DNA of 64,000 nucleotides, from contig NZ_CP114786.1 of assembly GCF_027359675.1 (NCBI RefSeq), positions 1,678,501 to 1,742,500 on the forward strand, read 5' to 3'. Numbering within the stretch: position 1 is the first letter of the stretch; every line of letters starts with the position of its first letter. The position numbers and the translations under genes were made by a program. Below are positions 40,775 to 43,919 of this stretch, in pieces. Below the pieces are notes generated by a model that had not been told where the DNA came from, made no database searches, and saw only the letters and a list, made by a program, of their open reading frames with translations. The DNA comes from Roseibium sp. Sym1 (GTDB lineage Bacteria > Pseudomonadota > Alphaproteobacteria > Rhizobiales > Stappiaceae).

Positions 40775-41467
40775 ATGTTCATTCCCCTTCATGACCACAA
40801 TCGCCTTGTCCACGTTCCCCTGCCCTACGTGAACCTGGCCATTATCGCAGTCACCGTGCTGATTTTCCTCGTGTTCCAGGACGCCGGAGAGCAGCAGGCC
40901 GTCGCCGCGTCGTCCTATTCTTTCGGGTTGATCCCGGTGGTGTTCTTCGACCTGCGCGACCTGGCGCCACAGTTGCAGGTGCTGCCGGAGTGGACATCGG
41001 TCGTGACCTACGCCTTCCTGCATGGCGGGTTCATGCATCTCATCGGCAACATGCTGTTCCTGTGGGTGTTCGGAGACAATGTCGAGGACGCCATGGGCCA
41101 TCTGCGCTATCTGGCCTTCTATCTGGTCTGCGCGGCTGCAGGCGGTCTCGCCTATGCGGTCATGGACGTCAATTCCGAGGTTCCGCTGATCGGTGCCAGC
41201 GGTGCGGTGTCCGGCGTGGTCGCGGCCTATCTGATGCTGCATCCGAGGGTTAAGGTCTGGGTGCTGGTGCTGGGGCGCATTCCGGTGCGCCTGACGGCGG
41301 TCTGGCTGCTTGGAGCCTGGATCCTTTACCAGGTCTTCAATGCGATCACCGCGGCGGACAGCCAGGTCGCCTGGATCGCGCATATCGGCGGCCTGGCCGC
41401 CGGCGCCGTTCTGGTCCTGGTGCTGAGGCGCCCGGGCGTGCCGTTGTTTGACCGAAACCTGGCCTGA
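40775..41467 (+). CDS. Rhomboid family intramembrane serine protease
   Basis: This 230-residue polytopic protein has six or so helices and the rhomboid catalytic dyad: Ser142 in LIGASGAVSG and His203 in AHIGGLAAG. The N-terminal WTSVVTYAFLHGGFMHLIGNMLFLWVFGDNVED is the second hallmark. It cleaves membrane proteins within the bilayer; its substrates here are unknown. It follows the adenosyltransferase by about 50 bp. Confidence 0.93.
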   Translation: MFIPLHDHNRLVHVPLPYVNLAIIAVTVLIFLVFQDAGEQQAVAASSYSFGLIPVVFFDLRDLAPQLQVLPEWTSVVTYAFLHGGFMHLIGNMLFLWVFGDNVEDAMGHLRYLAFYLVCAAAGGLAYAVMDVNSEVPLIGASGAVSGVVAAYLMLHPRVKVWVLVLGRIPVRLTAVWLLGAWILYQVFNAITAADSQVAWIAHIGGLAAGAVLVLVLRRPGVPLFDRNLA

Positions 41468-41495: not shown

Positions 41496-41885
41496 CTACG
41501 CCGCCTTCCAGACCGCGTTGGCTTGCCGGCAGGCGACGCCCTTGCGGCGCATGGATTTCCCCGACGCCAGCCTGATCACTTCGTTATAAGAACGACAATA
41601 GGTTCCCCTGGTGGTTTTCCAGGTCCTGGTCGGCGTGACCGAACCGCTTGCGCCGCTTTTCGCATTGCGCCAGTTCAGCGTTTTTCCGGAAACCGAATTC
41701 TCGAGGGCTTTTTGAAGATTTCTGGTGGCCAGGGTCTGGTCCGAGCGCTGCAATTCAGGCTCTGCGGACAGGGATTCAGGCTCGGGGCCCACCTGTCCGG
41801 ATGTTGCCGAACAGGACGATACCGTCCCCGCGAACACAATTAGGACCGCTACCCTTTTGGGGAGCCCACCAAATATTCCCGCCAA
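41496..41885 (-). CDS. Lipoprotein sharing the anti-sigma extracytoplasmic domain
   Basis: This 129-residue protein has a signal peptide with lipobox VSSC (Cys 25), then a Pro/Glu linker and a domain from about 57 to 126. That domain has the pattern LQKALEN-VSG, TPTRTWKT, TYCRSY and GVACRQANAVW, like rickettsial surface-antigen-type C-terminal domains, and closely matches the C-terminal domain of the anti-sigma candidate at 43227-43919. The only usable start is TTG at 41885, 21 nt after the repeat-protein gene, so the two form an operon. Two Cys (97, 119) probably pair in the periplasm. Confidence 0.78.
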   Translation of the reverse strand: MAGIFGGLPKRVAVLIVFAGTVSSCSATSGQVGPEPESLSAEPELQRSDQTLATRNLQKALENSVSGKTLNWRNAKSGASGSVTPTRTWKTTRGTYCRSYNEVIRLASGKSMRRKGVACRQANAVWKAA

Positions 41886-41906
41886 TACCGATCCCGCCTC
41901 TTGGAT

Positions 41907-42509
41907 CTATTTCCAGCCGTTCTGGATCGCTTCCTGTTCCTGACCCCTGGAAAGCGGCTTTCCGGAAGGTTCACTGTCGCCGGAAAATTGGCGACCGCCG
42001 AATAGTCGCTGCAGAAGACTGCCAGATCCAGGCTTTTCTTGGGCAGAGTTGCCAGAATCGTTGTTGCTTGCGGAATTGGCCGGGGAATTTGCAGTGCTGT
42101 CGTCACTGTCCGGAGCGCGTGTCTCGGACTTGCTTTGCGATGACGCGCTGCGATCACTGTCCCTGTCCCGGTCAGAACGACTGCTTCGTTCATTGCGGTC
42201 CGACTTGTCATTACGGTCGTTCTTGTCGCCGCGGTCCGACTTGTCATTACGGTCGTTCTTGTCGCTGCGGTCCGATTTGTCACCGCGGTCGCTCTTGTCA
42301 TTGCGATCCGACCTGTCGCTGCGGTCCTTGCCCCCTCCGCCACCACGTTCGCCGTGCGATTGTGCGGCAGCGGAAATGCTGTCCTTCATGTCGATCAAGG
42401 GGCTGAAGAGGACAAGAGAGAACACCATAACCGCTGCCACAGCACCCGGCAGTACGCTAATCATCACAGAGAGGCGGTCTTGCAATGTTATCTGGCGGGT
42501 GGGTTTCAT
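41907..42509 (-). CDS. Membrane protein with Arg/Ser/Asp repeat region
   Basis: This 200-residue protein has a short cytoplasmic N-terminus (MKPTRQITLQDRL), one transmembrane helix (about 15-38), and then a hydrophilic low-complexity region made of DR/DK and SD/ND units (KSDRSDKNDRNDKSDRG) spanning about 65 residues, followed by a Ser/Asn-rich stretch and a C-terminus ending EQEAIQNGW. I recognise no family. The repeats come from a 36-bp tandem DNA repeat. It is the first gene of an operon with the lipoprotein, divergent from the ECF sigma gene. An upstream ATG at 42620 is possible. Confidence 0.7.
   Translation of the reverse strand: MKPTRQITLQDRLSVMISVLPGAVAAVMVFSLVLFSPLIDMKDSISAAAQSHGERGGGGGKDRSDRSDRNDKSDRGDKSDRSDKNDRNDKSDRGDKNDRNDKSDRNERSSRSDRDRDSDRSASSQSKSETRAPDSDDSTANSPANSASNNDSGNSAQEKPGSGSLLQRLFGGRQFSGDSEPSGKPLSRGQEQEAIQNGWK
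42195..42329. repeat. 36-bp tandem repeat inside the Arg/Ser/Asp repeat gene
   Basis: Units begin at 42195, 42231 and 42267, each 36 bp, with a partial fourth unit to 42329. The first two units are identical except for the last base; the third and fourth have diverged. Each unit is itself two related 18-bp halves and encodes 12 residues in frame, so length changes would keep the gene open. Confidence 0.9.
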
Positions 42510-42603
42510 CAATTCGGTTTCTTGCGGTTTCTGTTGGGGGCAACGTTGCGAGAGAGCTTTTTTGCTGCCGTCGCTCCCATAACACCCGAGTGTTCTTTCT
42601 TCT

Positions 42604-42632
42604 TCCCGAGAATAGCCCAAAAAAAGTCGGGA
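42604..42632. promoter_or_regulatory. Inverted repeat in the sigma/repeat-protein divergent region
   Basis: TCCCGA (42604-42609) and TCGGGA (42627-42632) form a 6-bp inverted repeat around an A-rich centre, between the divergent starts. It could be an operator, but 6-bp arms occur by chance. I found no EcfG-type GGAAC...CGTT promoter. Confidence 0.2.
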
Positions 42633-42687
42633 TAAAAAAGTTTAATTAGGTGTTGTTAGTCGTGAGAGCGGTTTTGCGGAGAACTCC

Positions 42688-43230
42688 TTGCCTGAAGAAA
42701 TGTTAAAGACGGAGATGATCCGTCTGCTCCCGAAGCTGAGGAGTTTTGCTTTAAGGCTGTGCCGGAATGCGGATCAGGCGGATGATCTGGTTCAGGCGAC
42801 CTGTGAGCGTGCGATCCGGTCGCTTGACCAGTTCGATCCGGCGACCAGGCTTGACAGCTGGATGTTCCGAATCCTGCAGAACCTCTATTTCAATACGGTC
42901 CGGGACACCGCCAACCGGGCAAGGCTGTTCGATCTGGCCATGCTGGATTTCGAGGAAAGCTATGACGGCGCGAAGGCGGCGGCCAGCAGTCTGGAGCTGC
43001 AGCGGGTGCAGGTCTTTATCGGTGAACTTGAAGAGGACAGCCGTGATGTCCTGTTGAAGATCGCCGTGGAAGGCCGGAGTTACAAGGACGTGGCGGAGGA
43101 ACTCGGCGTTCCGATCGGCACCGTGACCAGCCGGCTGGCCCGGGCGCGGCTCAAATTGCGCGAATGGCTGGAGGCCAAGGATGCCGGGCCGCAAGCCAGG
43201 CTTCGCACTATGCCAGGGGGTGTGGGATGA
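42688..43230 (+). CDS. ECF-type RNA polymerase sigma factor
   Basis: This 180-residue protein has sigma region 2 (RSFALRLCRNADQADDLVQATCERAI and DSWMFRILQNLYFN) and region 4 (EDSRDVLLKIAVEGRSYKDVAEELGVPIGTVTSRLARARLKLREWL), with no region 1 or 3, as in ECF sigma factors. The start is TTG at 42688, chosen for GGAG 6 nt upstream; ATG at 42700 is the alternative. Its stop overlaps the next gene (ATGA), a typical sigma/anti-sigma pairing. It is not EcfG-like in context: no nepR or phyR is nearby. Confidence 0.92.
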   Translation: MPEEMLKTEMIRLLPKLRSFALRLCRNADQADDLVQATCERAIRSLDQFDPATRLDSWMFRILQNLYFNTVRDTANRARLFDLAMLDFEESYDGAKAAASSLELQRVQVFIGELEEDSRDVLLKIAVEGRSYKDVAEELGVPIGTVTSRLARARLKLREWLEAKDAGPQARLRTMPGGVG

Positions 43231-43919
43231 CTTTTGACGAAAGGCGCGAGCAGATCCTGCTTGCCAAGGATATCGGCAAGGTACTGGACGGGGAATGCGC
43301 CGAAGAAGAACGCGCGGCGCTGCGCGAACGCATCGAGAAACTGGATGGCGGCCCGGAGCTCATGCAGCAGATGGCGGCAGACAACTCGGCACTCCAGAAA
43401 GCTGTACCAGCCGCCGTACCCGATGCCTCGATGGAGCGCTTCCAGTCGCTGATCGACCGGGAATTTGCCAGGCGCAGCCGTCCGGCAGGCGCGGGCGCGC
43501 CGTGGACAGGTGTCGTCGCGCAGATGGCGGCGGCGCTTGTGCTGATCGCCGGCACCTTCGCCTTCACCACCTACTGGATGCAATCGCGCATGGACGACGC
43601 GGTGTCCTCGCTGGCCGCCCACATGGAAACCGAACGGATCCTGCTGGCGCAAACGGTGCAGGAGGCCCTTGAGACCAAGGTGAGCGGGGAACCGGTCCTC
43701 ATCGGCCAGGAAGGCGCCTGGAGCGAGGTCCTCACCCCGATCAAGACCTACCGCAGCAAAAGCGGGCACTGGTGCCGGCAGTATCTGCGCCAGACCACGT
43801 TCGGCGGCCTTGACCTGTCCATCAGGGGAACGGCGTGCCGGGACGTCAACGGAACCTGGACCACGGTATTCGCGGAGCCGGTGTCCGACAAATTCTCTCC
43901 GGAAACGCCAGGCATCTAA
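43227..43919 (+). CDS. Putative membrane-spanning anti-sigma factor
   Basis: This 230-residue protein has a cytoplasmic helical N-terminus (1-90), one transmembrane helix (about 95-117) and a periplasmic C-terminus (about 118-230). The N-terminal part (LAKDIGKVLDGECAEEERAAL) has the size and layout of an anti-sigma domain but no zinc HxxxCxxC motif. The C-terminal domain, VQEALETKVSG... TPIKTYRS... HWCRQY... GTACRDVNGTW, matches the lipoprotein at 41496-41885. It is coupled to the sigma gene by an ATGA overlap. It should bind the sigma factor inside and sense an envelope signal outside. Confidence 0.75.
   Translation: MTFDERREQILLAKDIGKVLDGECAEEERAALRERIEKLDGGPELMQQMAADNSALQKAVPAAVPDASMERFQSLIDREFARRSRPAGAGAPWTGVVAQMAAALVLIAGTFAFTTYWMQSRMDDAVSSLAAHMETERILLAQTVQEALETKVSGEPVLIGQEGAWSEVLTPIKTYRSKSGHWCRQYLRQTTFGGLDLSIRGTACRDVNGTWTTVFAEPVSDKFSPETPGI

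What the first reader, a model, noticed from the sequence alone, without database searches (positions are those of the whole stretch)
41496..43919. ECF sigma/anti-sigma locus with an extracytoplasmic domain shared by a neighbouring lipoprotein
The putative anti-sigma factor (43227-43919) has a single helix and a periplasmic domain at about 144-211. The divergently encoded lipoprotein (41496-41885) has the same domain at about 57-126. Direct comparison shows LQKALEN-VSG against VQEALET-VSG, then TP-[RK]T-[WY], [YW]CR-Y, and ACR----W, with two Cys at matching positions. No zinc-type anti-sigma motif is present. The lipoprotein could compete with, mimic or hetero-dimerise with the sensor domain, so that lipoprotein level or localisation sets sigma-factor release. 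I know of no described system of this design.
Basis: partly seen in the sequence, partly recalled or inferred. Interest (0 to 1): 0.82.

Follow-up and report, generated by a model that had tools for sequence, protein, structure and literature searches.

The report
Split-sensor sigma switch with lipoprotein twin
A marine bacterium carries a gene-control switch whose membrane sensor seems to lack a small end piece, and that piece sits instead on a neighbouring secreted protein made together with a lipoprotein twin of the sensor, which suggests an untested way for a cell to watch its own surface.

Summary
Confirmed, and larger than reported. Window 42688-43919 encodes an ECF26-like sigma factor and an anti-sigma factor whose periplasmic domain is homologous to a neighbouring lipoprotein, 41496-41885 (BLASTP E 9e-12; PF16998 for the lipoprotein). 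In 22 of 22 Roseibium genomes with the anti-sigma gene the lipoprotein gene lies divergently nearby; none of 15 congeners without it has the lipoprotein ortholog. A linked copy of the domain recurs in 8 of 12 comparable loci (6 other families). Ordinary anti-sigma factors of this group carry that tail in cis (profile-profile probability 96%, E 3.7e-9), predicted as an ordered strand plus helix, and have an S8 peptidase gene nearby (21 of 22 loci); the Roseibium anti-sigma lacks the tail and its locus lacks the peptidase. Two back-to-back copies of one ECF-type promoter motif face sigma/anti-sigma and tail-protein/lipoprotein. Best reading: a split sensor, the tail supplied in trans and contested between anti-sigma and lipoprotein. 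Tail binding, and its sign, are inferred. New variant of a known kind (ECF26-type signalling).

The parts
42688..43230 (+). ECF sigma factor gene (TTG start), ECF26-like
   Evidence: Pfam Sigma70_r2 3.8e-14 and Sigma70_r4_2 8.7e-15; promoter type
43227..43919 (+). anti-sigma factor gene, overlaps the sigma gene by 4 bases; tail-less type (19 residues after the ACR..W motif)
43227..43478 (+). cytoplasmic anti-sigma domain (residues 1-84, four helices)
43656..43871 (+). periplasmic 17kDa_Anti_2-like sensor domain (residues about 144-215) with two invariant Cys (183, 204)
41910..41990 (-). C-terminal tail QFSGDSEPSGKPLSRGQEQEAIQNGWK
   Evidence: E 1.1e-15 here, next best in the genome 2.2; hhalign to cis tails of anti-sigma factors, E 3.7e-9
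41496..41885 (-). lipoprotein gene, second gene of the divergent pair
   Evidence: PF16998 E 1.1e-8; lipobox-like motif in its orthologs
41508..41717 (-). domain shared with the anti-sigma factor (lipoprotein residues 57-126)
42629..42656 (+). ECF-type promoter-like site towards sigma/anti-sigma
42579..42606 (-). ECF-type promoter-like site towards tail protein/lipoprotein, back to back with the other

Best explanation
The locus is a self-contained ECF26-like sigma switch with a split sensor. SHOWN by sequence: the anti-sigma factor has an N-terminal anti-sigma-type domain, a membrane helix and a 17kDa_Anti_2-like periplasmic domain, but lacks the C-terminal tail that ordinary relatives carry in cis; a homologous tail sits on the predicted secreted low-complexity protein encoded divergently; a lipoprotein with a second, likewise tail-less copy of the domain is encoded next to that protein; matching promoter-like sites face both gene pairs. 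INFERRED: the sigma factor drives both pairs, including its own sensor parts; the tail docks on the tail-less domain in trans (a strand plus helix, like a donor strand); [quoted passage not shown] Most likely sign: tail-bound anti-sigma is stable and holds sigma; loss of the tail (failed export, capture by lipoprotein, cleavage) exposes the anti-sigma factor to proteolysis.
For: Homology of the two domains. Strict co-occurrence: 22 genomes with both, 15 with neither, of 37 of the genus (Fisher 1e-10, not corrected for kinship). Gene order held in 22 of 22. Length after the ACR..W motif is bimodal: 9-22 aa in 13 and 49-64 aa in 22 of 36 other-family loci, 1 undetermined. Linked domain gene in 8 of 12 tail-less against 0 of 22 tailed loci; in the 20 loci taken by score alone, 5 of 7 against 0 of 13, p 0.0014. 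S8 peptidase ORF in 21 of 22 tailed loci, in 0 of the 8 loci with trans tail and linked domain, and in 0 of 22 Roseibium loci: the two arrangements replace each other. A profile of Roseibium tails alone has as its top 6 of 2384 ORF ends low-complexity tail proteins of such loci (E 1.8e-8 to 3.5e-4), then cis tails of anti-sigma factors at ranks 7, 8, 10 and 12 (E 0.006-2.2); hhalign of the two tail profiles: probability 96%, E 3.7e-9. The cis tail is predicted ordered: residues 241-272, block pLDDT 89-97, helix, strand, helix. Matching promoter sites face both gene pairs. Domain tree: copies tend to group by type across families, which suggests an old pair.
Against: No binding was shown; no complex could be modelled and no coordinates were available, so docking of the cis tail on the domain is inferred from confidence values and secondary structure alone. 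Cis and trans tails align over only 21 columns, and with the Roseibium-only profile the 20 cis tails range from rank 7 to rank 458, one unlisted. The Roseibium anti-sigma domain is modelled with high confidence (block pLDDT 88-96 for residues 141-220) without any tail, so the tail may not be needed for folding. Four tail-less loci (L151, L158, L194, L195) lack both the trans tail and the linked domain gene, so a tail-less anti-sigma can exist without them; two of these have an S8 gene. The near-constant pairing of cis tail and S8 peptidase could mean that the tail serves the peptidase. The tail call in L150 is by eye. No significant PDB match of either model by Foldseek. Regulon and sign are untested.
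Confidence: 0.42

Rival explanations
1. One reading: the lipoprotein domain binds the anti-sigma domain directly (hetero-dimer, mimic or decoy for an outside ligand), so lipoprotein level or place sets sigma release; the tail protein is only a co-regulated product.
For: Shared domain and strict linkage.
Against: Does not explain why the linked domain gene goes with the trans tail (8 of 8 against 0 of 4) nor why cis-tailed anti-sigma loci lack it (0 of 22). No evidence of domain dimers.
Confidence: 0.15
2. Client assembly only: tail protein and lipoprotein form a surface structure, the lipoprotein anchoring the tail at the outer membrane; the sigma factor makes them, and the anti-sigma factor senses something else.
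For: Tail and linked domain gene co-occur and lie in one gene pair; stringent promoter sites in the genus are mostly at this locus (25 of 44 hits, plus 4 in the same back-to-back form, in 41 genomes).
Against: The tail is homologous to the anti-sigma factors' own cis tail, and the anti-sigma factor has the same domain as the presumed anchor, which this reading leaves unexplained.
Confidence: 0.2
3. Protease-site model: the tail is the recognition or cleavage site for a periplasmic protease (in ordinary ECF26-type loci the neighbouring S8 peptidase); moved to another protein, it makes that protein a decoy or substrate of some other protease.
For: S8 peptidase ORF in 21 of 22 cis-tailed loci (8 of these confirmed with Pfam, L099, L239); a divergent serine protease is reported as widely conserved in ECF26 (PMC6180224, section 7 read). 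My confidence was raised from 0.12 to 0.15, and that of the best explanation lowered from 0.45 to 0.42, when one search replaced an earlier incomplete count (11 of 22).
Against: No S8 ORF in 22 of 22 Roseibium loci or in the 8 other loci with the trans tail, so the tail outlives the peptidase; the tail is predicted as an ordered part of the model, not a loose end. L199 is tailed without S8; L151 and L158 have S8 without a tail.
Confidence: 0.15
4. Redox sensor: the two invariant Cys of the periplasmic domain open or close a disulfide under oxidative or sulfite stress; lipoprotein and tail are accessories.
For: Both Cys invariant in the aligned sets and cross-strand neighbours by the strand registers; ECF26 members RpoE1/RpoE4 respond to sulfite (PMC3511301, passages).
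Against: The same Cys are invariant in the lipoproteins, which suggests a structural disulfide; no redox gene was recognised among the immediate neighbours tested.
Confidence: 0.08

Closest known systems
ECF26 sigma/anti-sigma systems (Sinorhizobium meliloti RpoE1, E3, E4, E6 with EcfR anti-sigma factors; PMC6180224 section 7 read, PMC3511301 passages)
   Same: Sigma with co-transcribed anti-sigma (anti-sigma domain, one TM, periplasmic C-terminal domain); promoter -35 GGAATA / -10 GT; a divergent secreted-protein slot. The plasmid loci L239 and L240 have homologous sigma and anti-sigma.
   Different: In the loci examined here of that kind the anti-sigma factor has the tail in cis and the neighbour is an S8 peptidase (in the plasmid examples with a signal peptide and an Asp/Gly-rich linker); in Roseibium the peptidase is absent, the tail is in trans and a lipoprotein copy of the sensor domain is added.
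PF16998 17kDa_Anti_2 / RT0821/Lpp0805-family surface lipoproteins
   Same: Domain of the lipoprotein, and in weaker form of the anti-sigma sensor; the lipoprotein's relatives bear this name in their sources.
   Different: Described members are stand-alone surface antigens of unknown function (recalled); here one copy is fused to an anti-sigma factor.
Cell-surface signalling anti-sigma factors (PupR/PupB PMC7186176; FoxR/FoxA PMC11637429; abstracts read)
   Same: Works like: the periplasmic domain of the anti-sigma factor is contacted by a domain of another envelope protein that the same sigma controls; partner binding stabilises the anti-sigma factor.
   Different: No TonB-dependent transducer among the immediate neighbours; the partner element is a C-terminal tail on a low-complexity secreted protein, and a lipoprotein carries the sensor domain.
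RseA/RseB/DegS (PMC8103513, passages)
   Different: There the C-termini bind the protease DegS, not the anti-sigma domain; no homology to RseA or RseB was seen in the scans made.
ChrR and RsiW zinc anti-sigma factors
   Different: No zinc ligands in the window protein; unrelated periplasmic part.

Membership tests
ECF26-type sigma/anti-sigma | Sigma co-directional with a downstream anti-sigma gene (anti-sigma domain, TM, periplasmic C-terminal domain) | tested here: met
ECF26-type sigma/anti-sigma | Promoter -35 GGAATA / -10 GT (consensus quoted in PMC6180224) | tested here: met
   GGAAGAA / GGGATcAA..GTGTTgT in the Roseibium loci; GGAATAA..cGTTGT in several other loci
ECF26-type sigma/anti-sigma | Assignment by the published group HMM | not tested
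   no ECF group library on hand; of the 25 NCBIfam models shown only the general TIGR02937 passed its cut-off
ECF26-type sigma/anti-sigma | Divergent serine protease (reported as widely conserved for the rpoE6 type, not for all members) | tested here: not met
   no S8 ORF in 22 of 22 Roseibium loci; the divergent gene is a low-complexity protein
PF16998 17kDa_Anti_2 (lipoprotein) | Score above the curated cut-off of 26.6 bits | tested here: met
   35.4 bits
PF16998 17kDa_Anti_2 (anti-sigma domain) | Score above the curated cut-off of 26.6 bits | tested here: inconclusive
   17.3 bits for the window protein; two homologous anti-sigma factors score 42.0 and 32.0
Zinc-binding anti-sigma (ZAS) | H-x3-C-x2-C zinc motif (recalled) | tested here: not met
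   one Cys and no His in residues 1-84; zf-HC2 below cut-off
Anti-sigma factor | Anti-sigma-domain fold | tested here: inconclusive
Anti-sigma factor | Binds and inhibits its sigma | not testable with these tools
   needs two-hybrid or co-purification
TonB-dependent cell-surface signalling | TonB-dependent transducer with an STN signalling domain | tested here: not met
   immediate neighbours are rhomboid and etfB plus the module itself; only adjacent genes were tested

The most novel reading that the evidence does not exclude
[quoted passage not shown] The cell thereby measures unassembled against assembled client with one and the same domain, a donor-strand type of sigma control not found in the paper searches made here.
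Probability: 0.35. Interest if true: 0.85.

Novelty: new variant of a known kind. Interest (0 to 1): 0.68.

Why it matters
How ECF26 sigma factors are activated is called hypothetical in the S. meliloti study (PMC6180224, section 7). This variant puts sensor domain, tail and a rival copy of the sensor domain on different genes, so each can be deleted or overproduced alone; that makes the role of the tail testable for the whole group. It also gives a candidate role to one PF16998 surface-antigen lipoprotein, and suggests that a cell can watch an exported client by giving its sensor the same receptor domain as the client's anchor.

Tried and rejected
Solved-structure search by sequence with the anti-sigma protein: none at E up to 1. 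Foldseek for both models: no match at E 0.001; the VIA second look for the window model gave only middling Z (best 6.2), so no fold name is claimed for the sensor domain. The window model gave no anti-sigma row in that list; the anti-sigma fold claim rests on relative P0072.

A third promoter-like site in the own genome (G000 C1 5595179) overlaps open reading frames on both strands of its locus and is taken as chance. Strict-pattern hits outside the locus in the genus (15 of 44, against 9 hits of the reversed pattern in 41 genomes) give no support for a wide regulon at this stringency. The strict pattern hits the locus in 17 of the 22 genomes; the other 5 (G013, G019, G023, G030, G032) have variant sites.

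I first translated the middle protein in the wrong frame (rows 'mid'); corrected. In 13 of 22 genomes the lipoprotein frame runs straight on from the middle gene's stop; read-through was considered and dropped because the frames differ in the other 9.

Selection and dropped rows: L139-L158 are ranks 2-21, taken without regard to neighbours. L188-L200 came, where for G467, G681 and G709 a neighbouring domain hit was already visible, so that part of the sample is biased. L192 (contig edge; its genome has the partner gene on another contig, L193) and L241 (split anti-sigma gene) were left out of the linkage counts. The script missed the linked gene of L152 because it overlaps the anti-sigma gene by 4 bases (searches show it), and its S8 pattern missed most S8 genes; one search replaces it (its profile was built from 11 of these peptidases, which match by construction; the hits in L099, L140, L141, L143, L146, L148, L151, L153-L155, L158, L196 and L197 are independent). 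L156/L157 and L194/L195 are congeneric and L190 is of the family of L156/L157, so loci are not independent. The lipobox pattern is loose: it matches 22 of 22, but in L086, L091 and L092 it caught an earlier Cys than the likely one.

Cross-family promoter scan: p up to 0.05 for 7 of 10 sigma-ward and 8 of 10 divergent sites in tail-less loci (L192, L194, L195 not scanned), and for 9 of 17 sigma-ward sites in tailed loci (5 not scanned); L150 sigma-ward and L158 divergent were plainly negative. At phylum level (299 genomes) no further full-length tail-less anti-sigma appeared at E 1e-20.
Full report
OBSERVATION. Their domains are homologous: BLASTP 9e-12; the lipoprotein passes PF16998, the anti-sigma copy is below cut-off, while two homologous anti-sigma factors of other families pass. 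No zinc anti-sigma motif is present. The two Cys are invariant in 36 aligned anti-sigma factors and in 13 lipoproteins. By the strand registers of both models they lie opposite each other on a hairpin (183 and 204 on strands 182-192/195-205; 192 and 209 on strands 191-199/202-210), so a disulfide is likely.

LINKAGE IN THE GENUS. Of 37 genomes of the genus (G000-G036), 22 have the anti-sigma gene (E at most 6.9e-83) and all 22 have the lipoprotein hit within about 2 kb. The lipoprotein ortholog (E at most 1.7e-24) is found in the same 22; in the other 15 the best hit is 4e-10 or weaker, or there is none. Named relatives are Roseibium, Labrenzia and Stappia records and a few unclassified ones. 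The order lipoprotein(-), middle gene(-), sigma(+), anti-sigma(+), followed by etfB, is kept in 22 of 22; the rhomboid and cobalamin adenosyltransferase-like genes flank it in 21 of 22 (no hit in L090). Lipobox-like motifs precede the domain in the lipoproteins (loose pattern, 22 of 22).

THE MISSED PART. The middle protein (41907-42509) has a signal peptide or TM segment ending in A.A, a mature part that changes composition between species (Ser/Asp/Arg to Gly/Ser to Gly/Asp) and has no Cys in 22 of 22, and a conserved C-terminus FxGxSExSGxxLSxxEEREAIxNGW[KQR]. A profile of this tail finds nothing else significant in the window's genome (E 1.1e-15 for the locus, next 2.2).

WIDER FAMILY. The direct search with the anti-sigma factor gave 70 proteins; the sources that name an organism name Roseibium, Labrenzia or unclassified bacteria. 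A relative in another family of the order (L099: sigma and anti-sigma) opens a large set of proteobacterial anti-sigma factors with the same CR.[YF]...ACR..W domain (motif in 107 of the 120 listed of 284 hits), some called anti-sigma factor RsiW, RskA or ChrR by their sources. In the loci examined two architectures appear: tail-less (9-22 residues after the motif; 13 loci; Roseibium 19 or 21) and tailed (49-64 residues, typically ending G..L...EE..LI..GW; 22 loci), one undetermined. A separate gene with the same domain lies beside 8 of 12 tail-less loci (L142, L150, L152, L156, L157, L188, L189, L190, six families) and 0 of 22 tailed ones (Fisher 2.7e-5). Among the 20 loci taken by score alone it is 5 of 7 against 0 of 13 (p 0.0014). 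Loci are related, so the p values overstate the evidence.

TWO ARRANGEMENTS THAT REPLACE EACH OTHER. An S8 peptidase ORF lies in 21 of 22 tailed loci (not L199), in 2 of the 4 tail-less loci without a linked domain gene (L151, L158), in 0 of the 8 tail-less loci with it, and in 0 of 22 Roseibium loci of about 6 kb or 12 longer ones (Pfam confirmation of several). In the plasmid examples the peptidase has a signal peptide and an Asp/Gly-rich stretch before its protease domain, so the tail-bearing protein looks like a counterpart of that gene without its peptidase domain (inference).

TAIL IN TRANS. The same 8 loci have a divergent low-complexity protein ending in a tail like that of Roseibium; in the 4 tail-less loci without the linked domain gene none was found. 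Strength differs: L142, L156, L157, L188 and L189 are found by the Roseibium-only profile at E at most 3.4e-4 among 2384 ORF ends, as is the contig-end protein in L193 at 3.5e-4; L190 and L152 by the wider profile at E 0.011 and 0.034; L150 by eye and pattern only. After these the Roseibium profile ranks cis tails of anti-sigma factors at 7, 8, 10 and 12 (E 0.006, 0.15, 0.57, 2.2); the 20 cis tails as a whole lie at ranks 7 to 458, one unlisted. A profile of cis tails finds trans-tail proteins among and below the anti-sigma factors: L190 8e-4, L188 0.012, L152 0.055, L142 0.063, L156 0.097, L193 and L189 0.13, L157 1.6; L150 not. Profile-profile comparison gives probability 96.1%, E 3.7e-9 over 21 columns. 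In the model of a tailed anti-sigma factor the tail is confidently ordered: helix 240-252, strand 253-257, helix 260-268, block pLDDT 89-97 from residue 241, after a linker block of 57. That it packs on the sensor domain is my inference; no coordinates were available.

REGULATION. The Roseibium intergenic regions hold two back-to-back sites, GGGATcAAA..GTGTTgT towards sigma and GGAAGAA..GTGTTgT towards the middle gene (alignment of 22; pattern matches in 21 of 22 each). A strict pattern scan of 41 genomes of the genus gave 44 hits: 25 at this locus (17 of 22 genomes), 4 in the same back-to-back form in two further genomes, 15 elsewhere, against 9 for the reversed pattern. Comparable sites lie before sigma (7 of 10) and before the divergent gene (8 of 10) in other tail-less loci at p up to 0.05, and before sigma in 9 of 17 tailed loci scanned. 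This agrees with the published ECF26 consensus, -35 GGAATA / -10 GT (PMC6180224 section 7).

HISTORY. A tree of 58 domain copies (81 columns, weakly resolved: 26 of 55 inner branches open) separates the tailed copies (with one unlinked copy, L057) from the rest (96/91). It groups lipoproteins of different families (Roseibium with L142 and L188, 95/77; L189 with L156/L157, 83/91) and anti-sigma copies (Roseibium with L188, 84/92; L189 with L156/L157, 81/32). This suggests an old pair rather than repeated local duplication, without proving it.

MECHANISM. Shown: parts, homologies, linkage, matching promoter-like sites. Inferred: the tail completes or clamps the tail-less domain in trans; anti-sigma factor and lipoprotein compete for it; the sigma factor adjusts both. 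Precedent for a partner that stabilises an anti-sigma factor: PupR/PupB (PMC7186176) and FoxR/FoxA, where the partner protects FoxR from proteolysis (PMC11637429); abstracts read. Loss of the tail would then release sigma and raise production of tail protein and lipoprotein, a homeostatic loop. The opposite sign (free tail as activating signal, as C-termini of misfolded porins act through DegS on RseA; PMC8103513 passages) is not excluded.

NOVELTY. Searches of the paper library for this design found none; their listings were mostly not opened. The 2021 ECF reclassification paper is not held, so its group tables could not be checked; the design may be mentioned there. The system is filed as a new variant of ECF26-type signalling, not as a new kind.

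Noticed in passing
L190:6612-7766 (+): In this tail-less locus the divergent low-complexity protein carries a Hint-like segment right after its signal peptide (Pfam Hom_end_hint 5.9e-7, Hint_2 1e-5, both just below cut-off), which hints at self-processing.
   Followed up: no
L194:4305-5666 (-) and L195:4148-6094 (-): Divergent low-complexity proteins of two congeneric tail-less loci end in a dockerin-like Asp-rich stretch (DVDGNGVVDDRDL..) instead of the GW tail; these loci lack the linked domain gene and the S8 gene.
   Followed up: partly
L241:5010-5764 (+): The anti-sigma gene of Rhizobium sp. CC-CFT758 is annotated as two consecutive ORFs; a broken ECF26 anti-sigma gene is also described for S. 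meliloti 1021 (PMC3511301 passages).
   Followed up: partly
window 40775-41467 (+): A rhomboid-type intramembrane protease gene (Pfam E 4.4e-35) lies convergent to the lipoprotein in 21 of 22 genomes; whether it cleaves the anti-sigma factor is untested, and L090 has no hit at the locus.
   Followed up: partly
window 41885-41907 and orthologs: In 13 of 22 genomes the lipoprotein frame continues in frame from the stop codon of the middle gene, often through a similar short stretch (IQEAGS) that may reflect its ribosome-binding site.
   Followed up: partly
L139-L141, L143-L149, L153-L155, L191, L196-L198, L200, L239-L241, L099: S8 peptidase ORFs accompany nearly every cis-tailed anti-sigma gene examined (21 of 22, plus L241), so peptidase and cis tail may act together.
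   Followed up: partly
G000 C1:6242671-6242973 (-) and 6635993-6636310 (+): Two further PF16998 genes in the window's genome, not linked to this locus; one (L001) groups with other unlinked copies in the tree.
   Followed up: no
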